Assembly (NCBI GenBank): GCA_023052935.1
Contig: CM041292.1
Coordinates: forward strand, 112,683,436 to 112,747,435
DNA: 64,000 nucleotides
Direction of reading: 5' to 3'
DNA from: Piezodorus guildinii
Taxonomy: Eukaryota > Arthropoda > Insecta > Hemiptera > Pentatomidae
Every line of letters starts with the position of its first letter. Within the stretch, counting starts at the first letter, position 1. The notes below the pieces were generated by a model, which saw only the letters and a program-made list of their open reading frames with translations, made no database searches and had not been told where the DNA came from. Shown one piece after another: positions 23,640 to 62,292 of this stretch. The translations under genes were made by a program, and so were the position numbers.

Positions 23640-23711
23640 TCATGGTCCTGTGTCCTGGCTACTACGGAACTGAACAAGAACTATGAGGTAAGTGATTCCA
23701 CCAGAGATAAG
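23640..23711 (-). CDS. Gr exon 7: TM7 and C-terminus
   Basis: Acceptor CTTTTTACAG before 23711; 23 codons and a TGA stop at 23642-23640. LISGGITYLIVLVQFRSSQ carries the T-Y-x(5)-Q-F signature that defines insect gustatory receptors, followed by a short cytoplasmic-side tail. It joins exon 6 in phase 0 across a 260-bp intron. Confidence 0.93.
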   Translation of the reverse strand, partial: LISGGITYLIVLVQFRSSQDTGP

Positions 23712-23971
23712 CTGTAAAAAGAAAGATAATGTTTTACGATTCGAAATAAATTTCTATTAAAAGGAATATACCATTTCCTTAAATATTTCATATTTTAACG
23801 CTTTAAAGCAGCGGTAGCTTTCTTTCTCTTTTCCCGTAATAAACGACATTTAAACTACTGCAACGAAAATCTTGCTTAAGCTCATGCTGAACAACATCCA
23901 ATATAAGTATGTGAGTGAATATTTATCTCTATCTATTTACCTTATGTATATATATAAAATATGTTACTCAC

Positions 23972-24061
23972 CGAAACCAAATATTTTCGATTGAGATTGA
24001 TAAAACCACAGAGCTCAAAATTTGGATAATGGAAATGTATTGTTTGTATGAATAGATTAAC
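23972..24061 (-). CDS. Gr exon 6: pre-TM7 block
   Basis: A 30-codon exon with acceptor TTTTCCATTTAG before 24061 and a perfect GTGAGT donor after 23972, phase 0 on both sides. It encodes VNLFIQTIHFHYPNFELCGF then INLNRKYLVS. The F-x-x-C-G-F-x-x-L-N-R motif is a Gr hallmark just before TM7. Confidence 0.92.
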
Positions 24062-25046
24062 CTAAATGGAAAAAATAAAATTATTATTTAAGTGTTATAT
24101 TTGGAAAATGTAAAATTAAAAAAATATTGTTTTTTGTAACAGAAAAATAGTCAACAATATTCTTTATTTATCAAACAATAAAAAGAGGACATCCCTAGAG
24201 AAGCCCCAACATCGGCGGATCGGCCTGTATAGTAAACAATATAAAATACACTGCCTTGGTTTTTTAATTTTAGTTATTCAAAAGCCGAATCCAGGGCAGT
24301 AGAACGTTGTAAAACCTAATATGAATTCCAAAATAGAATCTTTCCTTTTGAATTGAATATTAATAATTGACCGTTGGGAAATTCAGGAGGAAAATAATCT
24401 GTGTGGTAGTCAAAAAAAGATAAATAATGAGATAGTCAAAACTATAAAATAAATACATAATTTCATTTGCACTGTATTCACTTTTTGATGTATACCCATC
24501 ATCCTTTTATTTTATTTTTTTTAAATTCTCAAGAGACAAATAACATAATCTTTCTTTGAGATCTTCTTGTTCTTTCAGTAGACTTTCATTCTTTCCAAAA
24601 ATGCTTGTTTACGTACATCAGACCACTTTGATCTGTACTGTATAGTGTTTTACTTGCCTAGAAATTGCTGGTTTTATGCCAGTATGTATTACTGCCAGTT
24701 TTATGATTGTCATTTATTGTAGTTTATTTTATTTTAAGGCTATCTATATGAATTAAATTAAGAAGAATTTGTTAGAATTATAGGTATTCTAGACCCTAAC
24801 ATGGTTATGATCCATTATTATAATTAACCCTCTCGTATTTTTGTTTTTCACCCCTTCCTATACGAGGGTTTTGGGCCCGGGGGGGGTACGCACTAGTATT
24901 TAGAGAATACTGCCTTACCCAGCCATCTTACTCTCAATTATGTTGTAATTATGCACAACAGACAGCAATATAGGGTATGTTTTCCCTTCACAGATACTAT
25001 TACACATCGAATCTTGATCCCCGGCTCGGCAAGCGTTGCAGTCGAG
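24062..25046 (-). other. Gr intron 5 part, no gene
   Basis: AT-rich intron sequence. A C/G-rich knot at 24874-24888 (GGGCCCGGGGGGGG) stands out but has no assignable role. Confidence 0.5.
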
Positions 25047-26149
25047 TAAGGGCCTTTTCACACATAGACGGCTGACGTCCAAACGGTTTATAATCCTAGG
25101 CTTATCAGCCGGGCAAACGGTCGTTGAGATAGGGACATAGTTGGAGCTTTCACACATACACGGCTGCCGTAAAAAGGCTTATCTGCCATGAAGCAGCCGT
25201 GCATTACCACTGAAACCACACGGCGCCGTGTAATTTATTTTGAATAATAATTAAATTTTGTTTCAATATAGACCAACTAATATCATTGTATAACACAACT
25301 AATATAATAAATTAATTAATTACGTAAATCAATGTTGAATAATTTGAATTTTTTTTTATATTAATTTAATAAAAGTTTTTTCTAGTATTCACAGCTATGA
25401 TTTAAATAATTATTTAACTTACACGGACATACTAACAATCTAATACGGAGCATGGCCACTAGTAACATGCCGGACAATACTCGCAGAAGACTGAAATGAT
25501 GCTGGATGAGGGACCTTCTAAGCTAAATCCTTGCCGCTATCTTCTCTCCATGATGCCTACAACGCCAACTACCATTCCTTCATCATCACATTCGCTGATT
25601 GTCAACATTTATTGACAGGTGTGAATGAAAAAATTTGAAGGTAAAAAAAAATAAAATAAAATAATTATTTCGTCACAAATCTATAGCTACAAAGTGTTAT
25701 GTAATTAATGACTTGCTGAAATGGTAGCTTTTAATTTAAAATTGTTTTAACTAGTTAATGCAATTATGATCATAATAGCAGGCAATTATCATTGTTGAAT
25801 TCTTATAAAATGTTGCTTTCAACTTTATATGTTCACTCTTATGTATTATAATCTAAGAAGTATTTTTATTAAATTAAAATATTTAATAGATGCATAACAA
25901 ATAAAAGAAGGATAGATGAAAACAAATTAAAAGAAACATTTGCATAAAAGAAAATTCCAAAAATGAATTAATTAGAATCCGCAACACTATTTATATTTAA
26001 TAACTATAAAACTTAGTTATTTAGTATCTGGTAAATTCAGTGAAGTAAACTTTTACTTATGTTTTGAAATTTATTATCCCTTTTTATAAATAATTCAAAT
26101 ATGTTAAGAATTCATATTCTTTGCTGCTGAAATTGCTGAAAACTGTGGG

Positions 26150-27330
26150 ATTGGTTTTCAACGCGGGAAAAAATATTCCTTCTTTAGTTAATAACTAATT
26201 GTTTCATAGTTTATATTTATCCATTTTGGTTTATTATTTTCAATAATGAAACTTTGTAATCGACAAAAAAAAAATGATAAAAAAAAAAATAACCCCAACT
26301 TAAAATTTGTTTCAAGATGCGTAGAATCCGAATAAAAAAAAAAATCCGTTTGTCCGCCGTCCACCGAACGCCCACTTTCGCGGCATTTCTCCGAAACTAC
26401 TGGACCATTTTTTTTTTTAATTCGCCACAAAAATACTAGTCCATTCAACGATGATCCTAACACCTAGACATTGATTGATATCTGCTGGTTAGTTTTAAAA
26501 TGACGGCCGATTAAATGTGATTTTATTTAATAACTCTTATCTCTATTTTTGAAGAGAGAAAAAAAATTATTATTGTTTTTTAACCAAAAAAAAAAAAACG
26601 CGAATAATTATATAAAAGAGCAAAAAGAAAAGAAAAATTGAAATTTTTTACATAATTATGCTTACAACTCAGTTATTTTTGAAGATAGAGAAAAGTGTTT
26701 TAGAATCAGTACAGCTCGATAAAAAAAAAAATTAATAAATAAAAAAAAAAATCATATGTATGTATATTCAAGTAACCAATTATAATAGATGTAATTACAT
26801 TAAAAATCAGTTATTATTAAAGAAAGATAAAAATCGAAAAGAATTTCGAGATCAAGACAACGCGACGGATAAAGTGTAAAGAAAAAAAAAATCATCTTAT
26901 ACGGTCAAGCCACAACTTATAAGAGATGTGATACACTGATAACTCGGTTATTATTGATGAAATGGAAAAAATGTAAGGTTTTCTGGAATCAAGAAATTGT
27001 ATTTGAATTAAAATCGAAAGAAAAGGAAACAGTAACGCAGTCCTGTATAAACGCTTTTGGTTTATTAATTTCAATAATGAACGTTTGTAATCGACCAAAA
27101 AAAAAAAAATAATAATAACCCCTCCTCAAAATTTGAGAGCTTACGTTTCAAGATGCGTACTACAACAACTAGTATAGATATTGCGATTTGAAATCAGTGG
27201 TAGTATTATGATATGTTGTTTTGAATTAGTGCTTTTCATATTACTTAATTGCATATCAACAGCCATATAAACAATTATGCCCTAATATTGTTATTTGGAA
27301 ATAATAAACCATTGTGTAATAATTTGCAGT
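26150..27330 (-). repeat. Repeat K copy (reverse) nested in the Harbinger-like element
   Basis: Read on the minus strand it starts AATTATTACACAATGGTTTA near 27328. It passes the GTAAGCTCTCAAATTTTGAG block and TTTGGTCGATTACAAACGTT, and ends with the CAGTAGTTTCGGAGAAATGC and GGACGGCGGACAAACGG blocks. Several (A)n runs mark it. No coding function is seen. Confidence 0.6.
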
Positions 27331-27549
27331 GTTTTTTTTTATCACTAAGATTGAGAAAAAGATAATTAATTATCAATATATACTGAATTAAAGGTATCAA
27401 GAGGGCCTTTTGTTGAGGAGATATGAAACAAGCTTAAATACCTGACTGCAGTTTTTTTTATTTTTGCTGTTGTTACTATTTTATTTTAGAGCTACTCTAT
27501 CAAAGCAATCGTTATTCAAGACTATTATATTAAATTATAAAAATTATTA

Positions 27550-27600
27550 TATTTTAAAGTTAGTATAATTATCAATTATAATTATACTAACTTTAAAATA
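27550..27600. repeat. Perfect 23-bp palindrome with 5-bp loop
   Basis: TATTTTAAAGTTAGTATAATTAT arms at 27550-27572 and 27578-27600 are exact reverse complements. It lies inside the Harbinger-like element and could be the junction of a small foldback insertion. Confidence 0.85.
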
Positions 27601-28300
27601 TTTTATGTTTCATATTACTAATATATTATATCATAAGTAAATATTTCATGTTGTATGTATTGATTTAATACATGAATCTTAAAAGAAATGCTGATCATTA
27701 AAATAAAAAGAATTACGAAATACAATTCGTTATATATTGATTACAATCAAAAGTGAACATTAAACAGCATAAGGTTATTACTATTAAATATTCAAAATAC
27801 ACAATACTAATCCAATATAGGGTATTACTATTTGATAATGGAACAACAATGTATTATTTTTATCATCTCTTACATTTGTCATGAGTCAGTTCTTAATCCA
27901 TAATGGAAATTGATACTGAGTATAATGAGCCACATACTCCATTTTCTCTGAATTAATTAAAGGTCAACCCAATATAACCTTTTATTTGTTTGTCTCTTAA
28001 TTTTCTTGATAAGCAAACAGACCGCTGAGAGTTGTTCGTGCTCCATTATTTAACTGAAAATTGAAAGATAAAACAACTGAAAGAAGAAAAATAAGATAAA
28101 CCGCGTAGCTGCCGCATAGAGGCGTGTAACGACCGTGCATAGCCGTGTAGCGGCCGCATATAGCCGTGTACGGCACATTTCCCTATCTCGGCAACTATAA
28201 GTGGACGGCAGCCGTGTACGTGTGAAAAGGAGGGGGATTAACGACCAGCACGGAAGATAAACATTTTTACAGCAGCCGCCTATGTAAGAAAAGGCCTTAA

Positions 28301-28904
28301 GACTTGTTGTCTACTTATTTTATTAGTTCCTTGATGAAACCCATGCCGAATATATCAGCGATATAAGTGTTTCCCCATAAATCATAATTTAATCCTTTAT
28401 GCAGCGGATTGTAAGAGGAACTAATAACCAAACTATTAATTTTCTCGATCAATTTATCAAAAAAGCCTTTTTCCATTAATAAATAAATCAATCTTTTGAC
28501 TCCACCGGAGAAGAGGGGAAGGGTAGAAAGGCCCTGCAAAATCTGAATAGAGGGCCGTGAAGCAGGACATGGCAGCAAAGAGGTCTAACGGAGAAGGGCT
28601 GCATATATAGAAAACACAGGTTTTCAGAAGTACTGAGTTTAGGAATGTGACAAGTTGCAGAACCCCAAAATAAAAATTACTTCCACTGTTTTCAAAAACT
28701 CAGCCTACTACTTACTATAAAGCTGTGTGATCGACAGTTTAATGGTTGATTAAATATGGGATTCAGGGGTTCTGCAATACAGCTTTATTTATTTATTTCC
28801 TTTTCTTATAGCGACTTCCACCACATCAAATATGCTTCACCATTCATCGAAACCAGTCATTAAACTAGCTCGGCTAAATTTCATACGGGAGTGAGACACA
28901 TTCA
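28301..28904. other. Gr intron 5 part, no gene
   Basis: An 87-codon open frame on the minus strand (28315-28578) shows no motif and no splice sites in register with the Gr exons; treated as chance. Confidence 0.4.
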
Positions 28905-28964
28905 TTTGTTTGTTTGTTTATTCTTTTAACGTCACTTTTATGCTACTATGGCTAATCGGACGAC
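28905..28964 (-). repeat. SINE-A 3' end, 5'-truncated, with 9-bp target duplication
   Basis: Only the tail (TTTGTTTGTTTGTTTATTC) and the ACGTCACTTTTATGCTACTA block remain. ACACATTCA flanks it at 28896-28904 and 28965-28973. Confidence 0.8.
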
Positions 28965-29000
28965 ACACATTCACTAAAAATTCTTTTTACTTTCAGCTTC

Positions 29001-31185
29001 CTCAGCTCTAGACGTTTCAACCTCCTGCCTCCTGACTCCCCTACCTACTGGCCAACTGATCCTAACCGTAATCCTGACATCCTTGACTTCTTCATTCACA
29101 GCGGATTAGGCTCCCTAAACATGTCGGTGACTCGCCTTGATGAACTGTCCTCTGATCATAGTCCATTGCTCCTTAAAGTATCCCTAATTCCTATTCCTAA
29201 ACCCACCTCACCGTCATTTATCAGAGGACCAGTAAACTGGGACCTTTTTCGCCAAATCCTGACCAATGATATTGACCTCAGAGTGAAACTCAAAACTCCA
29301 GATGACCTTGACGATGCCGTAAACTCCTTCACCATCGCTATTCAACAAGCTGTTTGGACTGCCTCCTCTCCCAAGCACTCCCAGATAAGTCATAACCAAA
29401 ATCATTTACCACAACACCTCATCCGCACCAAACGCCGATCCAGATCCTTATGGCAACGCACCCGTCACCCACAGATCGCCGCTCCTATAACTTTTATTGT
29501 AGACAATTAAAGAGGGAGCTGGCGACCTTACGTTCCCAATCCTTTAGTTCCTTCCTTTCTTCTCTTTCGGCTTGTGACAATTCCCTGTGGAATGTCACCA
29601 AGAAAATTCTAAAATCCCACCATATTTCCCATCCCCTCCGTCGTAGTAATGGTTCCTGGGCTGCGTCTGATGAAGACAAAGCCGAGGAACTTGCCAAATA
29701 CGTTTCCGAAGTCTTCACACCTCATCCAGAATCCCATCCAAACCACACTGCAGTAGTGGAAGAGTTCCTTCAGTCTCCAATCCCGCTTTCATTACCTCCT
29801 AAAGCAGTTAATCCCTCTGAGGTCAAATATCTTCTCCGAAAACTTGCACTCCGTAAATCTCCTGGATACGATCTCCTCACTCCTCAGATTCTCAGACAGC
29901 TTCCATCTAAAGCCGTTATATTTCTTACATATATTTACGACTCCATTCTACGCACTACTCATTTTCCTCTCTTATGGAAACATTCCACAATAATTCTCTT
30001 CCTAAAACCAGGTAAACCTCCTAACACTACATCATATATACCTATCAGCCTACTCCCAATCCTTTCAAAAATCTTAGAAAAAATCCTCCTCAAACGAATA
30101 TTACCTTTATTAGAATCCCACACTATTCCTTCCTATCAATTTGGATTCCGTTCCCAACATTCAACCGTTCAGCAAGGGCTCCGAGTCGTTGACCATATTT
30201 CCTCTGCCCTTGAGAACAAAGAGTACTGCTCGGGTGCATTTCTGGACATAACGCAAGCATTTGACCGGGTGTGGCACCCGGGATTGCTCTTTAAGCTCAA
30301 AAACCATTTACCCCAATCCTTATACCTAGTCCTCCGATCCTATCTATCAAACCGCTCCTTCCGAGTTCGTTGTGGTGCAGAATATTCCCATTATTATCCA
30401 GTCGAATCCGGTGTTCCTCAGGGCAGTGTCCTTGGTCCTATCCTCTACAATATATACACAGCTGATATTCCTCTTTGCCCTAATACCTTCCTTGCAACGT
30501 ACGCTGATGACACAGCTATCCTATCCTCTCACTTAGATCCCGAAATTGCATCTACAGGCCTCCAAACGCACCTTTCTCAAATTGAAGACTGGTGTAACAA
30601 CTGGAGAATCAAAGTCAATCAATCCAAATGCAGACATGTCACCTTTACCCTTCGAAAACAATCCTGCCCTCCAGTTCTCTTTAACTCCGTTCCGCTTCCT
30701 TTCTCCGACACAGTCCGGTATCTTGGCTTCCTTCTGGACAAAAGACTAACTTGGAACCCGCATACTAGACTTCAACGACAAGAACTTAATCGACGATTTG
30801 GACAATTATACAGACTACTGAACAGAAAGTCTAAATTATCTATCGAGAACAAACTGCTAATATACAAGACAGTACTGAAACCTATCTGGACCTACGGACT
30901 TGAACTGTGGGAACAGCCAAATTTTCTAACATCAAACGCATTCAATCCTTCCAATCAAAAGTCCTCCGAACAATAGTTAATGCTCCTTATTATGTATCCA
31001 ACCATACCTTACACCGCGACCTAAATATTCCATTTATTTTAGACCTTATACCATTAAAATTCTCTAAATTCTATCAGAACCTTATCCATCACCCTAATCC
31101 TCTAGCTCAATCCTTATCCAGCTCCACACATCCTTATCATCCTCCTAGAAGGTTGAAACGGCAGTGGCCTCGAGACCTCTTGTAA
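29001..31185 (+). pseudogene. Jockey copy B ORF2 (partial): end of endonuclease plus reverse transcriptase
   Basis: In frame from the truncation point: LNMSVTRLDELSSDHSPLLL (end of endonuclease). The RT follows with LLPILSKILEKILLKRILPL, AFLDITQAFDRVWHPGLLFK, GVPQGSVLGPILYNIY and an intact ATYADDTAILS. The conserved end is RRLKRQWPRDLL then the stop at 31183. Two single-base losses, near 29457 and near 30912, split it into three frames. There are far fewer lesions than in copy A, so this insertion is younger. Confidence 0.92.
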
Positions 31186-31459
31186 AATGTATATTGGAGT
31201 TCTAGCATTGGCTAGATTCTCCACTCACGTGCTGTATGCTTGTGAATTGTATATAGGTATGAGTGACTTTTGTATATATTTTTATTAATTTTGTTTTGTA
31301 TATATTTATATTGTATTATTATTATATAAATTTATTGTTTTGTATATATCGTGTGAATGCAGTATGAATGTTGTACTTTATCCCTATTAAAAATGTCCTA
31401 AATTGGACAGATTGTAATATTGTTCAATAAAGAATTGTTTCTAATAAAAAATAAAAAAA
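29001..31459 (+). mobile_element. Jockey-clade LINE copy B, 5'-truncated, 13-bp target duplication
   Basis: TACTTTCAGCTTC occurs at 28988-29000 and 31460-31472, giving exact ends. It begins inside the endonuclease domain and continues through the RT, 3' UTR, AATAAA (31426) and a short A-rich tail. Sequence and order match copy A at 9958-12416. It lies antisense in the Gr intron between exons 5 and 6. Confidence 0.94.
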
Positions 31460-31479
31460 TACTTTCAGCTTCATTTTAA

Positions 31480-31925
31480 CATATGGGAACAGTTACAGGG
31501 AGTAAGGTTTGGACTAAAAGGAGGGCGCCGAAGAAGTTCCAGTCCAGAAGTGACCAAATTCTCTCCGCATACTTTGGCACGGTGTGCTGGAGCGTTATCA
31601 TGGTCGAGGTACCAGGTGTCCATTGTTGACTTATATCAAAATTTTTTCATGGACTCCATGACTTTAGGCCGACACTTCTCAGTTTACTACGTAGTTGTGA
31701 TTGTCTTCTGTGTATCCAAAACAACACGCTCTATAATTCTACTAGATCTGAAAAACACAGCGATCATTTTTTCTTTGCATGTTATGATTTCCTGACTATT
31801 ACATTTGTATGCTTATTGTCAAAGATCCAAACAGTAATTTCAGCATCTTTGGGCACTAAATCACGCGATGAGCCATTTGCTCTTCTGTGACACAATGAGG
31901 CACCCAAAGATAAAGTTTCTTTCAT
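31480..31925 (-). pseudogene. Decayed mariner-family transposase fragment
   Basis: The minus strand gives, across several frames, VWIFDNKHTNVIVRK, a KMIAVFF-like block, VVLDTQKTITTT, and YLDHDNAPAHRAK followed by ELLRRPPFSPNLTPCN. This is the order W-x-F-E/D, DNAPxHxA, PxSPxLxP of mariner transposases, though stops are frequent. The terminal repeats were not located. It differs from the 14610 mariner (LLQDNARPHTA). Confidence 0.7.
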
Positions 31926-33054
31926 TAACAAAGTTTATTTACCTTTAAATGAGTTCTCAGAATCGCATGAATTGATGGTGCATGAAGGTATAATGTATCC
32001 TCTATGTGTTGATATGTCACTTACCAGTCTTCATCATATATTTTACTTACAGAAGAAATGTTTTAGTTACTGACTTACGCGGCCTCTCTTCTTTTCAACA
32101 TCCTTCAGTTCTCCATTCGGTAAAGTTCTCCATTTTAAATTATCTATATCATATGATTATAATCGTACGAAAACGTACTCCCACCACTTACCGCGATTTA
32201 TTAAATGTTTTGTCACCATACGTTTGAGCAAAGCAGTGAACCTAAAATATTACCAGAAGCTTGCGCTCTACACGAGAACGGACATTTGGCGAACTACAAA
32301 GTTCGAGATCTACAATTAATTTGGCCTGATTCTCCAGTGAAGAATGTTTGCAACTTAGCGGTCTAATGAGTCTTTTAAGGCACGAGTTTTTGTAGTATAA
32401 TTAACTACAAATTTGGTTCTGTCTCACTCCTTTGTATCAGATACTACAACGATACCTGGTATTTCGAATCTGAAGCAATAGCATCGACTTGAGGCTAGTC
32501 CCAGATGCGTACGTTTTTACTTCTTCCTCGCCACAGGTTTAGTGTTCTCGCTCTACGTCTACCCTTCTCCGTTACCAAGCCTCTTCCAAACGTACCCTCT
32601 CACTATATGGCAGCATTTAGCTCTGCAGGTCTGCTTTCACTAATCTATCCCTCTATAAAGTAAAATATTGAAAATAATAAACCACTACAACTGAAAACAG
32701 CATCTGTGTCGAGTAAAGTTTTAAAAAAATAATAAAATGTATTGGTTTACGGTTTCTTCACAGTGTCAAGAGATAATTTAACCGAGGTCACGCACAACTT
32801 ACAGGTTTCCTCCCAATTAAGGGACTCTTTAAGACATTCACGCCGGCGTGTACCAACTACCACTCACGCCGCTCGATAGGACAATCATGTGTGAGCAACG
32901 ACACCAATGGCATCGGTTTGATCACAACGACTGCAATACGTCGTTACTTTTATATTTCCATTCATTGCAGAATCTCTATCCTTTTTTGGAAATGTATTCA
33001 TAACATTCCCGCCAGATAGATCAAAGCACTGTGAAAGTAATTGCCGAAGGGAAT
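31926..33054 (-). other. Gr intron 5 part, unassigned
   Basis: More balanced base composition than its surroundings, with CGCCGGCG-type words near 32841-32875. It may hold the upstream half of the decayed mariner or another old element. No motif was recognised. Confidence 0.35.
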
Positions 33055-33122
33055 TAAAAAGGAATTTCAGCCTCGGCGCGAACTTCCTCGATTAGTTCTC
33101 AGTTCTACACCCACTGAGCTAC
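33055..33122 (-). repeat. tRNA-like sequence (SINE head or tRNA pseudogene)
   Basis: On the minus strand: GGGTAGCTCAGTGGGTGTAG (box A), then AACTAATCGAGG and GTTCGCGCCGAGG in box-B position. Without a matching acceptor stem it is more likely a tRNA-derived SINE head or relic than a working tRNA. It lies about 110 bp downstream of Gr exon 5. Confidence 0.5.
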
Positions 33123-33229
33123 CCTGTTCTAATGAATATTTGTAAAACATCTGAAGTTATATTTACCGAAATGTATTTCAGTCTAGTTTCATTAAAAAAA
33201 AAAAAAAAATCAACATTAAAGAAGGATAC

Positions 33230-33301
33230 CTCTCGCTGATATTCTTTATCCCTTCCCATTAAGTTCAAATGTAGGAGTTCTGTTTGAACTTTTTTTCCCA
33301 C
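33230..33301 (-). CDS. Gr exon 5: intracellular loop before TM7
   Basis: A 24-codon exon with acceptor CTTTTTCAG before 33301 and donor GAG/GTATCC after 33230, phase 0 on both sides. It encodes VGKKVQTELLHLNLMGRDKE followed by YQRE. The V-x(4)-Q-x-x-L-L-x-L pattern matches the conserved loop before the last membrane segment, which forms part of the channel gate region in this superfamily. Confidence 0.88.
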
Positions 33302-37794: not shown

Positions 37795-37828
<34 letters not shown>

Positions 37829-48351: not shown

Positions 48352-48739
48352 AAATAGGTAATGGAAAAGAATTGAAAAATTATTTTAAAGCCCATATATA
48401 GAAAGATAAAATTGCAATTGATGAATAAATATGCAGGAAATAGGACGTAATAATCTAAATAGTGAATTACTAATAAATCTATCAAAAGATAAAGGATAAG
48501 AGATAGTGAGATAGATGATCCAAATGAGATAATGGAAAATTTATCAGACATTTTAATTATTATTAATGCAGAGAAAATTATAATAACAGAGCTTAGAAAG
48601 TATGTATCTAAACAATTAGTAATGATATGATGTATGGATAAATAAAAAAGAGTATTATGGATTATAATTATGAAAATAATATACGTATGAATGGAAGGCA
48701 TTAACATTAAATGTTTTGTTAAAATAGTTGTAATGGTTA

Positions 48740-49336: not shown

Positions 49337-49368
49337 GTTATATTATAGTGGCTAATTTGAAATGGTAT

Positions 49369-50654
49369 TTAATTAGTATTTGAAATATTAGGAGATTTTT
49401 TCCTTTGTCTTCCTTTTTTATAATTACATACTTTAAATTCTTCTGTATCCATCAGCTCATTGCTGACAGACGCAGAAGTCGGAGAGAGTTCGGGAACTGA
49501 GGTAGTTGGAATAGGTTCAGGGATAGGAGGTTGGGGAGGAGACAGAGGAGGGGAAGGGAGCGGAGGAGGGGAAGGTGCAGGTGGAGGGGATGGAGGGCGG
49601 GGGGAGGTGGTGGCACTGGATCGGGCGCCGGTAGCGATAGGTCGAGGTATTGTGGAGGCGGTGGCTCTAGGCTGGTTGTCAGGCATAGCTACTGGGCTCT
49701 TGTTATCAGTAGATGTGCTTATGTTTTTTTGAAAGTTAAAAACGATGTCTACCTGTACCGAGGCGTCTTTTTCATCAATAATATTTTGTTTTGTAACGTT
49801 TTACTAAAGCTTAATGAGTTTTTCTCCTTATACAATCTTTTTGCCTCAAAAAAAGGGACTTTTTTTATTAATTTGTATACATTTAATTTCTCTTTGTTCA
49901 ATGAATACGGGACAGTTCCGATTCAGAGCGTTATGGTTATCTCCACAGTTAATACATTTTGGGGGGTTTGGACACTTCATATTTTCAGGGTGCCTTGCTT
50001 CCCCACAATTAGCGCAAACAGGCGTTACTTTTTTGCATTTTAATGTTGGAAGAGAAAACATTAGGCAATTGAAACACCGCATTGGCGCTGGTGTGAAAGG
50101 CAAAACCTTTAAACTATAGAAGCCAATTTTAATTGTTTCTGGAGGGTTAGTTAATGGAAAAGTTATAATATATGTGTGTGTATAATTTTGTACTCCATTT
50201 ACTTTTATTTTAATTCTATTAATGTCTGTTATACTACAACCAAGTTCGTTCTTTATTTCATCTATTTCAACATATTGAAGGTCAAAACAACTGATCACCC
50301 CTTTGTTATAATTCAATGTTCTGTGTGGACTAACCTGGACTTGAAATAACCCACCAAAATATTTAATTTCCAATAATATTTCTGATAGTCTGCTGCTATT
50401 ATTGTAGTTTCAATAAAAGTGTACCCTCTCTTAGTTTTTTTTTATATTTTTACCTCCCCAGCTAATCCCGTAACAAATTTGTTAATAAAAAATGGTGAGA
50501 CTTTTTAAAAGTCGTCTTCACCTAATCTCTCTACTATTAAATATTTCGGACTGATTTTTGGGGTTGAAACTAAGCTAATGTTTTCTATATTCGGCTTCAA
50601 ACGCCCTCTTTTTCTAAATTTATCCATGGGACGACCTAGGGGGCCTACCTCCAT
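49369..50654 (-). pseudogene. I-clade LINE ORF1, Gag-like, interrupted
   Basis: ATG at 50654 (MEVGPLGRPMDKFRKRG). The frame breaks near 50505 and 50445, then 50373-49846 carries the Gag core and CCHC knuckles (CFNCLMFSLPTLKC, CANCGEARHPENMKC, CINCGDNHNALNRNC). A strongly Pro-rich tail (TTSPRPPSPPPAPSPPPLPS) and a basic end follow at 49686-49369. The knuckles bind the element RNA. At least three lesions prevent translation. Confidence 0.82.
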
Positions 50655-50888
50655 ATTTTAAAACTAAGAAAAATGTTATACTTAATTTATCTTTCAAATA
50701 TAAGTATGATGTCTTTAAAAATAAATATATATATAAAAGTAATGTTAAATTAATTATGTATAGAATAATAAACTACAAAAAAAATTGATAAACACAACAG
50801 AAAAACTTAAATACTATGACTTATCAGTTTGAGGTTAGAGTGTAGAGCTGGAACAACCTTCCTCTTCAAGCGCCTAACAACGACTGGC

Positions 50889-51165
50889 GACATGTTTAAT
50901 GTACCGTTGGAAAGTTAAAGATTTTAGAAAAAATATTATCTTATACATACGCTGTTAAATGTTAATAGAGAGTGATGAAAAGCCTATAAAACTAAGTGAT
51001 TATTTTAGATAATAATATAATAGATTGTTTAATAAAACACATGTTTCTATAGAAATTCCATTTAACTAATTCTTTAATGGTTTCACTCATTTTTATTTCT
51101 TACTGTATTTGAAAATTCTTTAATCGATTCTATAAACGGAGGTAAGTGAAAGTCGTGTGTTTCCG
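50889..51165 (-). repeat. Repeat X (reverse, terminal part)
   Basis: ACCGTTGGAAAGTTAAAGAT, TTAATAGAGAGTGATGAAAA, TTTAATAAAACACATGTTTC and the terminus GGAGGTAAGTGAAAGTCGTG. Confidence 0.75.
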
Positions 51166-51478
51166 AAATCGTCGGAACCGTTTTGAGAAAATCATAAAAA
51201 GGTGCAATATGCATGGTATAAAGTGGCTCTTCTGGTAAGCCGATTATGATGAAAAAGTTTTTGTAACATCTCGGGCGTATAGATGTCTTAAATATGAAAA
51301 TTCAGTTTCATAGGACTTTTCGTTTCCGCCCGGGAGTTACCACACACACAGACCTTTTTCCGGGACTTGGTTATTTGGACTCAGGGGACCCTAAAACGTG
51401 TATTTCTGTCGAAAACTGGAATGCGAAAATTTTCACGATCCCAATACTTTCCCTTACTATATATAGTAAGTGAAAATA
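51166..51478 (+). repeat. Repeat X (forward, 3' part), head-to-head with its neighbour
   Basis: CGTCGGAACCGTTTTGAGAA to TTACTATATATAGTAAGTGA. It joins the reverse copy on its left at the terminus. Confidence 0.75.
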
Positions 51479-51950
51479 TGTTTGCTCTTTTCTCCTTTAG
51501 TTAGTTATCAAATTCGCTCAACTTGTATATTTAGCTGTTTTTTAGCAATGTTGATCGATCACATGGTTAATTTTATGAAATATACAAAATGAAAAGTACT
51601 TTAGAGGAAGAAAATTTAAACTGTCAGCATTTAAGCCCTGTCAGATTATTTCATTAAGAATGAAACCTACATAGGTTTAACATTAAAGCCTATTAAATTT
51701 TATAGCGAGTTAGATCAAAATCGTTATAAAGTGACTCTTCTGCCTGGCCGATATTGATATTGATGAAATTTCAGTTTTATACTACTTAGCACATACACAC
51801 ATACTGGGCAACATAGGCCTTTTTCTGGGACTTGGTTATTTGGACTCAGTAGACCCTAAAACGTGTATTTTCGTTGAAAACTGGAATTCGAAAATTTTCA
51901 CAATCGCTTTTATATAGTTTCGCTTACTGTTGATTTCATATATAGGTAAG
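51479..51950 (+). repeat. Repeat X (forward), tandem to the previous copy
   Basis: Starts at the TTTGCTCTTTTCTCCTTTAG block and ends TAGGTAAGTGAAAGT. More diverged than the preceding copy. Confidence 0.7.
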
Positions 51951-51955
51951 TGAAA

Positions 51956-52720
51956 GTAAAACGCTGTAAATTATTACACAATGGTTTATTATTTACAAAT
52001 AACACTATTACAGTATAGCCGTTTATTTATCTGTTGATAGGCAATTAAGTCATATGAAAAGAAATAAACAATTCTAAGGAAAATGACATAAAACCTCTGA
52101 TAATTTCAAAACGCTATATCTCTGCTAATTCTGAAGCAATTTCAATATTTTTTTATTTTGTAGAAAACTGTTAGGATTTATTTATTTTTTGGGAGAAACG
52201 GATTTTTTTAATTCGATATTCGGATTCTACGAATCTTGAAACGTAAGCCCTCAAATTTAAGGGGGGTTAATTTTTTTTCGTCGATTACAAAGTTTTATTA
52301 CTTAAAAAAATAAACCAAAAGCATTTATACTGGACTTCGGTATTATTTCCTTTCCTTTTATTTCGATTTTCATTCAAATAAAATTTCCTGACTCTAGAAC
52401 ACCTTACACTTTTTCTCTATCTTCAAAAATAACTGAGTTATGGCAAGATTTCAATTATTTTCCTCTTTCCTTTTTTGTTTTTCTTATTTATCGCATTTTA
52501 CTGATTCTAAAACTCTATACATACTTTTCTCTATCTTCAAAAATAATTGAGTTATGGGCGTATTTATGGGTAAAATTTCATTTTTTTTATCTGCTATTAA
52601 TTATTCGCAGACTAGAAAGAAATGAGGAGGGGGGGGGTGTAATTTGTTGGTCGATTACAAAGGTTCATTATTAAAAATAATATACCAAAAAATAATAAAT
52701 TATTGGCATTTTCAAGTCTC
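51956..52720 (+). repeat. Repeat K copy (forward)
   Basis: AATTATTACACAATGGTTTA at its start directly follows the X terminus. Later blocks are CGTAAGCCCTCAAATTTAAG and GGTCGATTACAAAGGTTCAT. Repeated AACTGAGTTATGG phrases at 52430-52560 suggest internal duplication. Confidence 0.65.
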
Positions 52721-53044
52721 CATCAATCTCGTCTTCGGGCCAATTAATTCTGTTCCTCCTTTTATTGCTAATATTTAGTTTTTTTTAATGTTTTGTATAA
52801 AGAAAGTTTTAACAATCTAAAATCGCCCGTCGTGATTACATAAAGCCGCTCAAATGCACTATGCTCAAATGTAAAATAAGTTACCAGCATTCATGTAATT
52901 TATAGGGATCAAAGCAATTTTTTTTTCCTGATATATGTTATATAGTCGTAGATTGATGAAAAATTAATACCTACGATTTTCTACTGACTATGTTCGAATT
53001 AAAAAGACTTTTTTTTTTTTTCTATCGAGCTAACGATTCTTGAT
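52721..53044. other. Unassigned stretch
   Basis: AT-rich, no recognisable feature. Confidence 0.4.
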
Positions 53045-53240
53045 ATGGTCATGTCTTTATTTTATTTTGCTTGTTTGGTTGTATTGCGTTCAACAGCTAG
53101 GTCATCAACGCCCAGAGATTTTATTTTGTTGTTTGTCACTACCCTGAAAGGTCATTGGCAACTGAGGCTTCTTAGATTCAGACATCTTTTAGTTCCTGTT
53201 TATACTGCAGACGATTTGCTGGCTGGCTACTCATTTTATG
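53045..53240 (-). repeat. I-clade LINE 3' UTR relic
   Basis: Minus strand CTCTGGGCGTTGATGACCTA then GCTGTTGAACGC parallels the terminal GGGCGCTAATGACCTAGATG-TTTTGCGC of the 44741-50888 LINE. GC-complementary ends around a GACCTAG loop suggest a conserved 3' hairpin. No coding part is attached. Confidence 0.5.
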
Positions 53241-53850
53241 ACTAGTCTTTTCAGCTCTGAAAACGGGGTTAACGGGAAAGTTTTGATCCTGTTTTGATTT
53301 GTTCACCATTTATGTTTTTTGGGTCGCTAAACACGAATCTGAAGTTTGCGGGCAGAAATTTTGTAAGAGTTTTTGAGACATAAAAGATATGTTAAAACAG
53401 AAACTAATCATATGTTCGATGGGATAGAAAATCGAATGTAATTGGTCACTTCATCAAATTAATTAGCTGCTTAGTAAGAGTTTTAGAACTGCAAGAAATT
53501 CATTTTTGTAATACGTATAGTACTACCGAATTTTTAAAAATATTTCTAGATATATGTTCGATTATGTAGTCAACCATGCATCTTTTGAAACCGCTTTATT
53601 TTGAATAAAACCATGTTCTTAAGTGCGTTTTAGTGTTCAAAAACGTTTTTCTAAAAGTTTGTTAACTTTTCCGGTAGTTTATAATAACTTATATTTGTCA
53701 AGCTTACGGAAAATCACATGAGACAGATACAGGTTACAAATTGTTGTTAATATTCTTTGAACTCAATTAATTTCTTAGTTTTACAGTTTAATGCAGTGTT
53801 TCCAATCACTAAATTACTAATTATTAGGCTCGTTTCGTTTTAGTAGAAGT
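53241..53850. other. Unassigned; may include the 5' UTR of the next Jockey element
   Basis: AT-rich with no motif. The 5' end of the Jockey element starting near here could not be fixed, because no convincing target duplication to the poly(A) side was found. Confidence 0.35.
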
Positions 53851-53878
53851 GCTAATAAACAAAAATTCCATCCCATTG

Positions 53879-55222
53879 ATGGGGGAGCCGTCAGCGCCCG
53901 CGCTTTCGGTTAGTGAAATGGACACTCTTACTAACAGTGAAGAAAATAATGCATGGGAGCTAGTGATAGGAAGAAAAAGGCCTCTCAATAGTGATAAAGA
54001 CACACCAAATCAAAAACGACCAAATCAGGTTATTCCTACCAGCAACAGCTTTGAAGTATTCTCACAAACTACTGAACCAAAAAATTTCTCTCTGAACAAA
54101 CGAAAACAAAATGAAAAGGTACCACCTATTTTTATCAATGGTGTTCAAAACTACTCACATTTTGTGTCATTTTTAGAAAAAGAAGCAGGCCATCAAAAGT
54201 TTAAAATAAAATCAACTCTGAAAGGTATAACTGTATACACAGACACCCCGACAACATACCGAAAACTCACTAGTGCACTAAGACAAAATGGTGCAGATTT
54301 TCACTCATATCATCTTTTAGAGGATCGTATCCCAAGAGTTGTGGTCAAGGGTCTTCATCACACCATTGACAAAGAAATATTAAAAAACGAATTCAAGGAA
54401 TTGTGATACGAAGTTACGAACGTAACAAATGTAATTTCCCGATTTAAAACACCATTACCGATGTTCTTTGTGGACATCACAAAGTTATCATTTAACGAAA
54501 AAATATTTGAAATCGAGTATATTTATTACTCTCGAATAAAAATTGAAGAACCTCGAAAAAAGAGAACCATCCCACAGTGCTTAAGGTGCCAGCAGTACGG
54601 TCACACAAGATCATACTGTAACCATCCACCGAGGTGTGTTAGATGTGGTCTTAATCATGTTAGCACTACCTGCACCAAGCCGAGAGACACCCCAGCTAAG
54701 TGTGCTAACTGTGGTGGAGAACACCCAGCAAACTATAAGGGCTGTCAAACTTTAAGGGACCTTAGAAATGCCAGAAGACAGTTCCAACGACCAACACACA
54801 TTCAACCAGCGCAGATGCCTCCTCGCTCAGAAGACTTCCCGACCCTCAGTCAGCCATCCCACTACCCTCCACCGCCGCAGCAACCTTCGCCCCTTCAGTA
54901 TGCACCGCCTCCTCAGTACTCTTTACCTCTTCAGTATCCTCCAACTCCGCAAAATCATGTGCCGGCACAACCAGAAACCAGCTCTGGACCTCAGAAGCAC
55001 CCTCTGCTAGCACAACCGAGATTTAGCTCTGGACCTCAACAGCAAACAATACTGTCAGGTATGGGAGAAGGCATTACCCAGCAGGTTCCTCCAACTGTAA
55101 GTAGTTCTTCCCAAATGGTAGACATAATTAGAGAAATTAATAATCTTATCCACCCCCTTTTCAGTATTCTCCAACATTTATCACAGATTTCACAAGTCTG
55201 GTGCACATCATATGGACCCTAG
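53879..55222 (+). pseudogene. Jockey copy D ORF1, Gag-like, single in-frame stop
   Basis: ATG 53879 opens MGEPSAPALSVSEMDTLTNS. Gag core: PPIFINGVQNYSHFVSFLEK, then RIPRVVVKGLHHTIDKEILK. A TGA at 54404-54406 interrupts the frame, which otherwise continues unchanged to MFFVDITKLSF. Three zinc knuckles follow (CLRCQQYGHTRSYC, CVRCGLNHVSTTC, CANCGGEHPANYKGC). A Pro/Gln-rich tail follows (QPSHYPPPPQQPSPLQY). The stop codon overlaps the ORF2 start by 11 nt (ATGGACCCTAG), consistent with coupled translation in this clade. Confidence 0.88.
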
Positions 55223-57842
55223 TCACTTAACAGTGGGTACCTTGTCAATACTCCTTTGGAACGCTAACGGACTTAACCAACATATAACTGAGCTTGATTT
55301 ATATTTGCATGAAAATAGGACAGACGTAGCACTAATAACTGAAACTCACTTAACACCACGTTCAAAATTTTACATTCCAGGTTACATTATGTACAGAACA
55401 TACCACCCTGACAAGACAGCACATGGTGGAACGGCTATACTGATTAAAGCAGTTCTTAAACATAACTCTGTAGAACTACCCATCTCACCGATAATACAAT
55501 CAACAGGCATCACACTTTACACTCAGCACCACACTATCACTCTTGCAGCTGTGTACTGTCCGCAAAGGTACGTTTTGACACCAACAATGTTTTCTGACTT
55601 TTTTAAACTATTAGGGAGATGCTTTATCGCTGGAGGCGATTTTAACGCCAAACACTACAACTGGGGTTCCCGGCTCTGCACCACACAAGGAGGAAATCTG
55701 TTAAGTGTCCTCCAAAATCTTTCATTGGACACAATCTTCCCAAATACCCCTACATACTGGCCAAATTCTCTACACAAAACTCCTGACTTACTTGACTTTT
55801 TTTATAACTAAAGGACTTAAAACTGTACCTCACACTGTTAAAACTGGCTTCGATCTTTGCTCTGATCACTACTTAGTACACTTGATTCTTCATGATGAAC
55901 CCTCAGAAGTAAATAAAAGACTCACTCAGTCAGAGAAATATGGACTGGGATTTCTACAGAGTGTACTTAGAATCTCTTATTTCAATTCCTTTATCGCTGA
56001 AAACAGAGGAAAAACTTGAGACGGCAGTTGATGTCTTCACCAAGTCTATACAGAATGCAGCGTGGTCTTCATCTCAACCCAGCAGCAAACATGCAACGAA
56101 CTTACCTTGCTACCCACAATACATAAGGGACCTGATCAGAGCAAAGAGAAGAGCTCGTAAAGTGTGGCAAACAAACAGATTACCATCAGACAAACGGACA
56201 TTTAACAAACTTAACAATGAACTGAAACGAAAGATACAAAAATTCAACAGAACTACTTATGAATCTTACATTGAAAATTTAGGAACTGATGATGGAAGCT
56301 TATGGAGACACACAAAAAACGTCTTAAAGCATCGCACGGTGTCGGCTCCTTTAAGGAGAGAAGACGGTTCCTGGGCCGTGTCGGATGAAGAAAAATCTGA
56401 ACTCTTTGCTGACCATCTTTCATCTGTTTTCACACCACATACTGACGACACTAATAAAGAACACTACGAATTTGTACTAAAAACCTTAGACATTCCACTA
56501 CAGCTCTCATTGCCTCCTCCTTCCTTCATTCTATCACAGGTCGCAGAACACATTAAAGACTTACAAAAAAAGAAAGCTCCTGGCCACGACCTTGTAAATG
56601 CTGTAGCACTTCAGCAAATGCCAAGAAAGGCTCTAGTGTTTCTCACGACTATTTATAATGCAATACTTAGGACTACAAAATTTCCAATACAGTGGAAATA
56701 CTCTTACATTTCTATGATTAATAAACCAAACAAGGACAAAAACAACCCCTCTTCCTACCGCCCAATTAGTTTGCTTTCTATTTGCTCCAAAATATTCGAA
56801 AAATTATAATACAAAAGATTAATAGACATACTAGGTGATAATCAAATAATACCCGATCATCAATTTGGATTTAGGAAATTCCACTCCACAACACATCAAC
56901 TACACAGAGTGACTGATTTCATTTCAACTGCGCTTGAGCAAAAATTATATGCAACAGGTGTATTCCTGGACGTAGCTCAAGCATTTGACAGAGTCTGGCA
57001 CCAGGGTCTCCTGTTTAAACTCAAGAAGATACTACCACACACATACTTTCTTATTATTCAATCATTTCTCTCTGACAGATTTTTCTCCGTTCGACAAGGT
57101 ACAGAAACTTCTTCAATAAGACCAGTGCTGGCAGGTGTGTCCCAAGGTTCAATACTTGCACTACTGCTATATATATTATACTCGCACGACATACCAGACA
57201 GTTCAAACATCCTAACAGCAACATACAGGATTGGTAGTACAGGATTGGTGCAAGCTGTGGAAAACAAGACTAAACTATGACAAATGCCAACATATGACAT
57301 TTACACTAAGACGTGAAACCTGCCCACCAGTGTACATCGATAATATACCAATACCAGAAACAGACAGTGTCAACTACCTTGCACTAACTTTTGACAGGAG
57401 AATGACTTAGGGCCCGCACATTAAGAAAAAACGAAAGACACTAAACCAAAGAAGTAGACTGCTGCACACACTACTCAGACGACAATCAAAACTAAAATTA
57501 AGACAGAAACTTGCCACCTACACATACTTACTAAAACCAATATGGTCATACGCCTCTCAAATTTTCGGAGCTGCAAAAAAGACTCATATACAAAGACTTC
57601 AAACTTTTCAGTCAAAAATACTTAGACGAATTACGCAAGCACCTTGGTATGTTTCAAACACAACTTTACATACAGACTTACACATGCCTACCGTCAGCGA
57701 ATACATACGAACTCACTACTCTCGATTTCACAACAAATTACTAGGACATTACAACCCTCTCATATAACAAATGGCAACAACCAATATGCCCCACAACATC
57801 AGGAGAAGACTGAAAAGGTCATGGATGAGAGATCTTCTGTAA
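55212..57842 (+). pseudogene. Jockey copy D ORF2, endonuclease and reverse transcriptase with catalytic deletion
   Basis: The endonuclease shows LLWNANGLNQH, LITETHLTP, AVYCPQRY and GGDFNAKHYNWGSR. After a frameshift in a T run near 55803, 55940-56809 holds RRARKVWQTNR, REDGSWAVSDEEKSELFADH, KKKAPGHDLVNAVALQQMPR and SYRPISLLSICSKIFEKL. A TAA follows at 56807, then QFGFRKFHSTTHQLHRVTDF, GVFLDVAQAFDRVWHQGLLF and AGVSQGSILALLLYILYSHD. The frame jumps from TATY to unrelated codons near 57225, so the YADD catalytic box and about 60 residues are deleted. The tail RRLKRSWMRDLL ends at 57842. Confidence 0.88.
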
Positions 57843-58010
57843 TCTTTTGAATTAAAACATGCCACGGAAGAGATACCACTGGGTGTTGTCATCTTCCTCA
57901 TGCCTGACATGCCACTTTTTATTGTGATTTTGACAGACAATCCACTGATTGTTATATGTATGTATAAACAGGTGTGGATAAAGAAATAAAGTTATTAAAA
58001 AAAAAAAAAA

Positions 58011-58692
58011 TAAAACCCTGCATCTGGCTCCTGGACAATCGTGTGTGCCCGTAACATATTTGTTTTGTTTGCTTGGAAGAGAGACTAAGGTTTTACATAT
58101 TTATCAGCACACCTACAGATATTCCAAATTATGTCTCAAATGAAGATAACTTTTAAACTTATAGCGTTTATTATACATTGATATAATGAGATTATTTAAT
58201 ATCATTAAGAGCCACTTTCCAAAAAACTGTAAAACTTTTGACATTGAACTACAATAACAAAAACTTGCTAAAATGTCTGAGACACATACACCAATTTTAA
58301 ATATAACATTTCGGTTCCCAATAATTTGTCGACTTATCGCACCATTTTGCGAGACTAATTAATTTTGACTCTGAGAACCTTCAAACATGAATTTGTTTTG
58401 GAAACTCACAATCGCAATACCTATACTCCTAGGTATAGGTATATTTCATTTATAGGTAAGTGAAAGTAAAAAATTATTGCATACAAAAACTGTTACGTGA
58501 GTTAAAAATTAGGTTATGAATGAATTTTTAATGCTGATAATTTTTGCTTATCAAGCAAGTGAAAAGACTAAATACCGTAGTAAGAATTTGAGCATGATAT
58601 GAGGTATAACCATAATATGAACAATTACGATCATTTGAATGGAGTTCAGTCAGTTAATTAATTAATTCTGTTAAATATTTATGATGACGTAC
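58011..58692 (-). other. Gr intron 3 start, with a repeat X terminus
   Basis: Contains a diverged X 3' end at about 58380-58470 (ending TAGGTAAGTGAAAGTAAA). The rest is AT-rich intron. An 81-codon stop-free stretch on the minus strand (58105-58350) lacks usable splice sites. Confidence 0.5.
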
Positions 58693-58937
58693 CTGAAGAG
58701 AATGACACTTAGAGAAGTACTTAAGGATGCCTGCGATTTCAAACCAAACTGTTATCGGACCAAAGGCTTGAAACATGTTAATCAAAACTTTGATTTGGGA
58801 ACGAAGTATACTGTCAAAGATATTTCTCTTATTGCTGAATAAAGTCTGTGTACGTAAATACAATAATATTATTTCGACTGTTATAAATACTATTGAATAA
58901 AACGTCCAACACGAAAAGAGTTTGAAGTGTGGAATGC
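58693..58937 (-). CDS. Gr exon 3: TM1 and TM2
   Basis: Acceptor TTTTTTTTTACAG before 58937 and donor CAG/GTACGT after 58693. Two leading bases join the G of exon 2 to form Gly, then 81 codons follow. TM1 is FSCWTFYSIVFITVEIILLY; the SW/CW-x-x-Y-S start is typical of Gr TM1. TM2 is IKVLINMFQAFGPITVWFEI. The exon ends KYFSKCHSLQ and splices in phase 0 to EDLNAYNMV of exon 4 across a 21.4-kb intron. Confidence 0.88.
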
Positions 58938-61021: not shown

Positions 61022-61253
61022 CTTGCGACCAGAGATCTATGTATTTGATATAAAAATCAATCCAAGATGGGGAAGAGAAAAAAATTCGAATTGCTGTATA
61101 AAACGTAAAAATTTAAAATAACTACCTCAGTCGTATAGTCAGTATGAATAATCAGTACACAATCTTGGCCATACATAACTAAATCACGGAAAAATATTAG
61201 GAGACGATAAGAGTGGCATAATGATAAATCTCACTAATAAGATGTTGGCTTTG
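61022..61253 (-). other. Gr intron 2 part
   Basis: Short unassigned stretch. Includes a splice-flanked 53-bp open segment (61126-61178) that was considered and rejected as a Gr exon. Confidence 0.5.
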
Positions 61254-61445
61254 ATAGGGATCTTTAACGAGTACCTGACATCTCATAGGCACGGGACTAC
61301 CTTTTTATGTACCCTCCGAAGGACTGCATAACTTAAGATTTTTTACTCCATCCTAAGTTAAAAATCCTAGGGCCACCTGCGGGTTTGAACCCGTGACCTT
61401 GGGCATAGAATGTTGTTATACTAGCCACTTTACTACAAGTGACCC
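61254..61445 (-). repeat. SINE-A copy lacking its 3' tail
   Basis: tRNA-like head at 61380-61445 (GGGTTTGAACCCGTGACCTT on the plus strand) and body to ATAGGGATCTTTAACGAGTA. The AAATAAATAAAC tail region is missing. Confidence 0.78.
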
Positions 61446-61558
61446 CAGTTAACATTTTTTTTAATTAACATTTTTAAAAACAGTTTATTTAACTCAAGTA
61501 TTTATACCAATTCTTTCAACGATCAACCACCACAAGATATGTTATGCAAATAAAGTAC

Positions 61559-61711
61559 CTTTATGTTCAATATAAGGAAATCCACCAATCATCCGTAAGC
61601 AATATATTACTGGTTTAATTACTTTGTAGAAGGAGGATTCTGGTTTGCCAGTCAGGCCCTTTGTCTTCTGCAATGCTGTTCCACGCCAATCGTTATGTCC
61701 TTTTATTATTC
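61559..61711 (-). CDS. Gr exon 2: N-terminal region with the conserved pre-TM1 helix
   Basis: Acceptor TTGTTCCAG before 61711 and donor AAAG/GTACTT after 61559. The 50 complete codons include SSFYKVIKPVIYCLRMIGGF followed by PYIEHK. This is the F-Y-x-x-I-K-P-x-x-Y-x-x-R-x-x-G-x-x-P pattern that opens many insect Gr proteins. Enters and leaves in phase 1. It has no in-frame ATG before the motif, so a further upstream exon is required. Confidence 0.85.
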
Positions 61712-62189
61712 CTGGAACAATTGAAATATATGAATGACGAACAGATGTGTATTCATTATAAAGTTAAATCGTCCATAAAGTAGTCGTTTCAAAACAAAGT
61801 AAATGGCGTACTATAACTTTTTGTGGGCAAACATCAAGTTTGTCGTGAAATCGTTTATATGTTGGTAGAATACATTTGCAATATAGGCTAGGAAGGGATG
61901 AGAATAATAACAAATTGATATATGGTATAAGAGGTTTGCTGGTATGGATTTATCTGAATCTCAGAGTTTTAAATTTTAGACTTATACCCCTCGGCTTCAT
62001 TTACGTTTGTTACATGTTAATTTCGATTAAGGTGTATAAATAAAGTTGGGAAGGAGAGAGAATCAATAATTCTTTTCCTCTCCTTGCGGTATTCCAAGGC
62101 TTTTTTATTTTTTCAAAACTATTAGAATACGACACATAATGAGAGCTAAAATTAAACATAATAATCTGAAATTAGACGAAAACAAATAC

Positions 62190-62292
62190 CATTTTTGTTA
62201 AAAAGAATCGATGCTGTTGGATTCATGTTCACAAAACAGTTATCCGAAGCACTGGGAATGGTAATCATGAGTCGGCCTTTAATGGGTGACAT
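62190..62292 (-). CDS. Gr exon 1 (candidate)
   Basis: Starts at ATG 62292-62290 and encodes MSPIKGRLMITIPSASDNCF and 14 more residues, ending at AAAAATG/GTATTT in phase 1. Exon 2 needs exactly one leading base, and the junction restores a Gly codon. It is the only plausible start found upstream of exon 2. The sequence has no family motif, as expected for the variable Gr N-terminus. No promoter element was identified. Confidence 0.45.

What the first reader, a model, noticed from the sequence alone, without database searches (positions are those of the whole stretch)
23640..62292. A seven-exon gustatory receptor hidden in 38.6 kb of transposon sequence
Most of its exons are too short to stand out as open frames, yet they join into about 423 codons with perfect GT-AG boundaries and phases 1,1,0,0,0,0. 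The model contains the FYKVIKPVIYCLRMIGGFPY block, seven hydrophobic segments and the TYLIVLVQF signature. ORF-length or repeat-masked annotation would probably report only exon 4 or nothing. The exons show no stop or frameshift although every neighbouring transposon is decayed, which suggests selection on the receptor.
Basis: partly seen in the sequence, partly recalled or inferred. Interest (0 to 1): 0.9.

Follow-up and report, generated by a model that had tools for sequence, protein, structure and literature searches.

The report
Stink-bug CO2-subfamily gustatory receptor gene
An intact seven-exon gene spread over 38.6 kb of transposon-rich DNA in a likely stink-bug genome is predicted to encode a gustatory receptor whose closest named relatives are filed with insect carbon-dioxide sensors; it is real, but an ordinary member of a known family, and what it senses is untested.

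Summary
The finding is real. The joined protein matches 7tm_7 (PF08395) at E 3.6e-20, 73.1 bits against a cut-off of 26.6. A profile of relatives without the window protein picked exactly exons 2-7 out of 3433 six-frame ORFs. Exon 1 is supported by relatives, but they place the start 22 codons downstream, at 62226, giving 401 aa. Two paralogues in this genome share the seven-exon plan, with exons 3, 5 and 6 identical in length. The nearest relative is Halyomorpha halys 'gustatory and odorant receptor 63a' (69% identity). A sister lineage includes Graphosoma GR17; a protein of that name is put in the CO2-receptor subfamily by a published tree. So this is a new orthologue of a known gene: H. halys already has models lacking only the start. 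The subfamily placement is inherited from names and published trees. CO2 as ligand, expression and dN/dS are untested. Interest is low to moderate.

The parts
62190..62226 (-). exon 1, coding part as corrected (MNPTASILFNKN + 1 base)
   Evidence: resembles the N-termini of H. halys P0004 and paralogues A and C; score 30 against P0004's first 12 residues, reached by 0 of 200 shuffles; 37 nt as in paralogue A
   Evidence: no counterpart in P0004 or in the exon 1 found for paralogues A and C
61559..61711 (-). exon 2 (153 nt), FYKVIKPVIYCLRMIGGFPY block
   Evidence: profile of relatives E 1.2e-10
58693..58937 (-). exon 3 (245 nt)
   Evidence: profile E 2e-34; 245 nt also in paralogues A and C
36718..37254 (-). 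exon 4 (537 nt), four of the seven hydrophobic segments
   Evidence: profile E 1.5e-72; segments
33230..33301 (-). exon 5 (72 nt)
   Evidence: profile E 1.2e-7; 72 nt also in A and C
23972..24061 (-). exon 6 (90 nt)
   Evidence: profile E 3.4e-13; 90 nt also in A and C
23640..23711 (-). exon 7 (72 nt incl. TGA), TYLIVLVQF
   Evidence: profile E 8e-11
37255..58692 (-). intron 3, 21438 bp, with LINE remnants (RVT_1 and RNase_H ORFs 45016-47321 minus; PRE_C2HC and endonuclease ORFs 54407-55811 plus) and 109-bp satellite arrays
24062..33229 (-). intron 5, 9168 bp, with a LINE RVT_1 ORF (29396-30976 plus)

Best explanation
The seven exons form one intact predicted gene for a seven-segment insect gustatory receptor (7tm_7), orthologous to the Halyomorpha halys gene named 'gustatory and odorant receptor 63a', and it likely belongs to the subfamily from which the CO2 receptors of flies and moths evolved. 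Shown here: the gene structure, the 7tm_7 match, the orthologue group, and two paralogues with the same structure in the same genome (partial matches point to probably two more). Inferred: its protein forms a ligand-gated cation channel subunit in the membrane of sensory neurons, probably as a heteromer with one of its paralogues, as Gr21a and Gr63a do in Drosophila. On binding a small molecule (CO2 or another compound) it would open and depolarise the neuron. The long introns are passive: transposons have piled up in them without touching the splice sites.
For: 7tm_7 E 3.6e-20 on the joined protein, none on the incomplete join. Six of 3433 ORFs found by a profile without the window protein. 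69% identity to H. halys P0001 over 372 positions. Tree of 7 rows: window + H. halys P0001 + Nezara P0005 supported 99/98; H. halys P0004 + Graphosoma GR17 + paralogue A supported 96/98. Same seven-exon plan in paralogues A (C1:95.76 Mb) and C (C6:80.60 Mb). A Graphosoma receptor of the name GR17 comes from an antennal transcriptome and is classed as CO2-receptor subfamily (PMC11302851, passages); that it is the protein P0006 rests on the name. Oncopeltus and Cimex keep candidate CO2 receptors (PMC6444547, passage).
Against: No sequence of a proven CO2 receptor could be fetched, so the subfamily placement rests on NCBI names and published trees. Robertson and colleagues think it unlikely that all cockroach members sense CO2 (PMC6175461, passages). 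The solved structures that matched were Gr43a and one other 'Gustatory receptor', over the C-terminal part, best E 0.0067; the single-sequence search listed Gr43a at 0.048 and two NADH dehydrogenase chains at 2.4. The structure model of the H. halys orthologue was too poor to use (pLDDT 51.2). No expression data. This gene's branch is about twice that of H. halys P0001, and at four columns it departs from all the other rows present, against three for P0001, two for P0004 and 29 for C.
Confidence: 0.85

Rival explanations
1. It is a gustatory receptor of this subfamily, but its ligand is not CO2; it senses another volatile or taste compound. (This is a branch of the best explanation, which leaves the ligand open, not an alternative to the gene.)
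For: The subfamily is expanded in cockroach, termite and thrips and is thought not to sense only CO2 (passages). The window protein and Graphosoma GR17 are only about 40% identical.
Against: No result here speaks against it; it fits the sequence as well as CO2 does.
Confidence: 0.5
2. It is a recently silenced pseudogene whose exons happen still to be open.
For: Longest branch of its trio and four departures from otherwise unanimous columns. Paralogue A in the same genome has a one-base frameshift in exon 4. Coding GC is 37% against 48% and 47% in A and C.
Against: No stop, no frameshift and all twelve splice ends intact over 38.6 kb. Introns of this gene carry stops in 6-7% of codons. The C-terminal motif is intact.
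Confidence: 0.08
3. It is one splice form of a locus with several alternative 5' exon sets; 63 of 198 H. halys GR genes yield several isoforms (PMC7071726, passage).
For: H. halys has isoforms X1-X3 of the orthologue.
Against: No second copy of exons 2-7 in the window or in a stretch reaching about 9.6 kb further upstream (L032). The H. halys isoforms differ by a 57-aa insert between exons 4 and 5 and, in X2, a skipped stretch of exon 4, not by alternative receptor exons. The insert resembles a dispersed repeat whose copy in intron 4 here has an in-frame stop.
Confidence: 0.06

Closest known systems
Halyomorpha halys gustatory and odorant receptor 63a, isoform X3 (P0001)
   Same: 69% identity over 372 aligned residues; same order of segments and C-terminus
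   Different: the H. halys model has no exon 1: its first Met lines up, without gaps, with Lys52 (AAG) of the 423-aa model in exon 2; isoforms X1/X2 carry a 57-aa insert between exons 4 and 5
H. halys gustatory and odorant receptor 63a paralogue (P0004) and Graphosoma rubrolineatum GR17 (P0006)
   Same: same family; P0004's N-terminus supports exon 1; their orthologue A has the same seven-exon plan
   Different: about 40% identity to the window protein; separate orthologue group
Gr21a/Gr63a and Gr1-Gr3, CO2 receptors of flies, mosquitoes, moths and beetles
   Same: NCBI name of the H. halys relatives; published trees put pentatomid GRs there (passages)
Drosophila Gr43a (PDB 8jm9)
   Same: weak similarity over the C-terminal part (E 0.048 alone, 0.0067 with the profile)
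   Different: fructose-receptor lineage (recalled); no full-length similarity by sequence

Membership tests
Insect gustatory receptor family (7tm_7, PF08395) | full-length match above the curated cut-off | tested here: met
   73.1 bits against 26.6, residues 67-417 of 423, profile 2-368 of 370
Insect gustatory receptor family (7tm_7, PF08395) | seven hydrophobic segments | tested here: met
   seven 19-residue segments with mean hydropathy 1.34 to 2.29
Insect gustatory receptor family (7tm_7, PF08395) | C-terminal TYhhhhhQF motif (motif name recalled) | tested here: met
   TYLIVLVQF at 23693-23667
Insect gustatory receptor family (7tm_7, PF08395) | three C-terminal phase-0 introns (recalled as ancestral; PMC3011840 names ancestral introns s, t, u, but its figure with the phases was not seen) | tested here: met
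   introns 4, 5 and 6 are phase 0 here and in C; in A by exon ends and lengths, since its frameshift upsets the running count. Identity with s, t, u was not tested
Insect gustatory receptor family (7tm_7, PF08395) | channel fold of solved GRs | tested here: inconclusive
   model of the orthologue P0001 has pLDDT 51.2, pTM 0.44; no fold search run
CO2-receptor subfamily (Gr21a/Gr63a, Gr1-3) | clusters with proven CO2 receptors in a tree | tested here: inconclusive
   no such sequence was returned by three protein searches; placement only through names and Graphosoma GR17
CO2-receptor subfamily (Gr21a/Gr63a, Gr1-3) | CO2 response, alone or with a partner | not testable with these tools
   needs expression and recording
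Sugar receptors (Trehalose_recp, PF06151) | match to PF06151 above cut-off | tested here: not met
   not listed for the full protein at E <= 10; C-terminal 77 aa 12.8 bits against 21
Fructose receptors (Gr43a) | closest to Gr43a along the whole protein | tested here: inconclusive
   only the C-terminal part matched Gr43a, E 0.048 alone and 0.0067 with the profile; no tree with Gr43a was built

The most novel reading that the evidence does not exclude
In this bug the CO2-subfamily receptor complex is being rebuilt: the antennal-type paralogue (A) has just lost its frame, while the window gene, evolving about twice as fast as in H. halys, takes a new partner or a new ligand.
Probability: 0.08. 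Interest if true: 0.5.

Novelty: new member of a known kind. Interest (0 to 1): 0.27.

Why it matters
In 2009 the CO2-receptor lineage was reported absent from the pea aphid, human louse and the other more basal arthropod genomes then available (PMC3011840, abstract and passages). Later work found candidates in Oncopeltus and Cimex but not in Rhodnius, pea aphid or louse (PMC6444547, passage), and their ligands are unknown. A chromosome-level, intact orthologue with its paralogues and a corrected start codon gives the constructs needed to ask what these receptors sense in true bugs. It also shows that a receptor gene with a 21-kb transposon-filled intron can be recovered whole from sequence alone.

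Tried and rejected
Exon 4 alone, and exons 1, 2, 4 and 7 joined without 3, 5 and 6, give no 7tm_7 match, and exon 4 alone gives no PDB match.

Three protein searches returned the same six pentatomid proteins, so no dipteran or lepidopteran CO2 receptor could be put in a tree. In one search only the 7997 candidates sharing most words were scored; one search had 28 candidates.

The structure model of P0001 was too poor for a fold search; none was run.

dN/dS was not computed: the only DNA relatives (paralogues A and C) differ from the window gene at 66% and 71% of third positions, near saturation. Position-wise differences (45/31/66% over 358 codons for A, 55/36/71% over 384 for C) show constraint on second positions since the duplications, not on this branch alone.

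Rfam at gathering thresholds found nothing. A tBLASTn hint that the H. halys 57-aa insert has a counterpart in intron 4 turned out to be a dispersed repeat with a stop.

All six relatives returned are pentatomid (family recalled for Nezara and Halyomorpha, stated for Graphosoma). The Nezara record sits on a 244,108,438-base contig, against 222,218,125 for C1 here, so it is probably not that assembly; of the other contigs only C3 and C6 lengths were seen.
Full report
Observation. The two named peptides lie on the minus strand at 61631-61572 and 23693-23667. Exons 1, 2, 4 and 7 were placed by eye. I then listed splice-bounded open stretches in the two gaps (a first count with narrower limits gave 660 and 207). 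In the scored list (best 45 of each shown) 58937-58693 ranked first for exon 3; for exons 5 and 6, 24061-23972 ranked first and 33301-33230 fourth. The join has 1272 nt, no internal stop, GT-AG at all six introns and phases 1,1,0,0,0,0.

Is it more than chance? The joined protein matches Pfam 7tm_7 over nearly the whole profile, E 3.6e-20; leaving out exons 3, 5 and 6 gives no match. Because exons chosen by hand could favour a match, I took the alignment, removed the window row, and ran a profile of the six database relatives (three are isoforms of one gene) on every six-frame ORF of at least 12 aa. Of 3433, six passed (1.5e-72 to 1.2e-7), and they are exons 2-7, same strand and in order; the seventh scored 0.14. 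The reversed window (3623 ORFs) gave 0.22 at best.

Exon 1 and the start. The profile does not reach exon 1, since the H. halys orthologue models begin within what aligns with exon 2. The H. halys paralogue P0004 begins MEPTVPVFFTKE, resembling MNPTASILFNKN at the end of exon 1. A search for ATG-to-phase-1-donor stretches upstream of exon 2 in two paralogous loci found MDSTIPVFFTKE (37 nt; an in-frame ATG further upstream exists too) in A and, with a lower score (23), MAYEYLPSIYFTKK (43 nt) in C. In the window the best stretch is exon 1 with score 30 against P0004's start, reached by 0 of 200 two-base-block shuffles (mean 16.0, maximum 28). These relatives put the start at 62226, so the likely protein is 401 aa (P0004 has 403). 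Similar non-conserved N-terminal extensions are described for DmGr21a (47 aa) and DmGr63a (23 aa) (PMC3011840, passages).

Relatives. Database: H. halys P0001-P0003 (isoforms X3, X1, X2 of 'gustatory and odorant receptor 63a'), P0004 (same name, other gene), Nezara viridula P0005 (234 aa), Graphosoma GR17 P0006; two further searches added none. Own genome: paralogue A on C1 near 95.76 Mb and paralogue C on C6 near 80.60 Mb. At C3:72.185-72.245 Mb, profile matches to exons 2, 3 and part of 4 and two exon-7-like ends, one of these below the inclusion threshold (exons 2 and 3), point to probably two more divergent members that I did not model. A and C have seven exons each. C has phases 1,1,0,0,0,0; A has the same exon ends, but its exon 4 is one base off (545 nt), which shifts the running count. 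Exons 3, 5 and 6 are 245, 72 and 90 nt in all three genes. Tree of 7 rows: window, P0001 and P0005 together (99/98); A, P0004 and P0006 together (96/98); C on a long branch whose place is unsure; order within both trios unresolved.

What it does. Recalled knowledge: GRs are tetrameric ligand-gated cation channels. A receptor named GR17 in Graphosoma comes from an antennal transcriptome and is one of six GRs there classed as CO2-receptor subfamily (PMC11302851, passages). The H. halys antennal transcriptome holds six candidate CO2-receptor sequences, many of its GR sequences being incomplete (PMC7394822, passages). Arma chinensis has four (PMC11096949, passages), Gerris six related genes (PMC6249893, passages), Cimex four (PMC8382127, passages). 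A subunit of a small-molecule-gated channel in sensory neurons is therefore the best reading. CO2 itself is not shown: in cockroach the authors think it unlikely for all members (PMC6175461, passages). I met no functional test of this subfamily in a bug, but the look was short: one search listed 8 of 8 papers, one search listed 12 of 83, and I read passages of only some of them.

Results against the reading. The window branch (0.31) is the longest of its trio. At four columns it departs from all the other rows present, against three for P0001, two for P0004 and 29 for C. Coding GC is 37% against 48% (A) and 47% (C). These could mean relaxed constraint. Against decay stand the open frame and intact splice ends: introns carry stops in 6-7% of codons, so 400 open codons would have chance about 1e-12, though exons were chosen for being open, so this number flatters.

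Surroundings. The gene body is about 3% exon (1272 of 38653 bases). Six of the ten ORFs sent to Pfam lie in it; five carry LINE-type domains (RVT_1 in intron 5; RVT_1, RNase_H, PRE_C2HC and endonuclease in intron 3) and one, 55913-56809, had no match.

Verdict: a true, intact new orthologue of a known receptor gene.

Noticed in passing
39595-40160 and 40423-42368: Two arrays of a 109-bp satellite (5.2 and 17.9 copies) in opposite orientation, about 260 bp apart, inside intron 3: a large inverted repeat. A genome-wide copy search did not complete.
   Followed up: partly
L018+L019 (C1:95754001-95772900), near base 8062 of the joined stretch: Paralogue A, which groups with H. halys P0004, has a one-base frameshift in exon 4 while its other exons are open with GT-AG ends: fresh pseudogene or assembly error.
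   Followed up: partly
L033, L031, L034, L035 (C3:72185101-72225000): Partial matches to probably two further divergent members of the subfamily, with TYLIVLVQ ends.
   Followed up: partly
35583-36451, 50890-51167, 19107-19533: Dispersed repeat family. The 57-aa insert in H. halys isoforms X1/X2 resembles it, so that insert is probably an exonised repeat; the copy in intron 4 here has an in-frame stop.
   Followed up: yes
14686-15824 (+): Remnant with an HTH_23 match below its cut-off, probably a mariner-type transposase broken into two ORFs (type recalled).
   Followed up: no
G000: 81 genome-wide 7tm_7 matches at E <= 0.001 (111 of 307 candidates scored, so a lower bound), several with stops inside: a large GR family with likely pseudogenes.
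   Followed up: no
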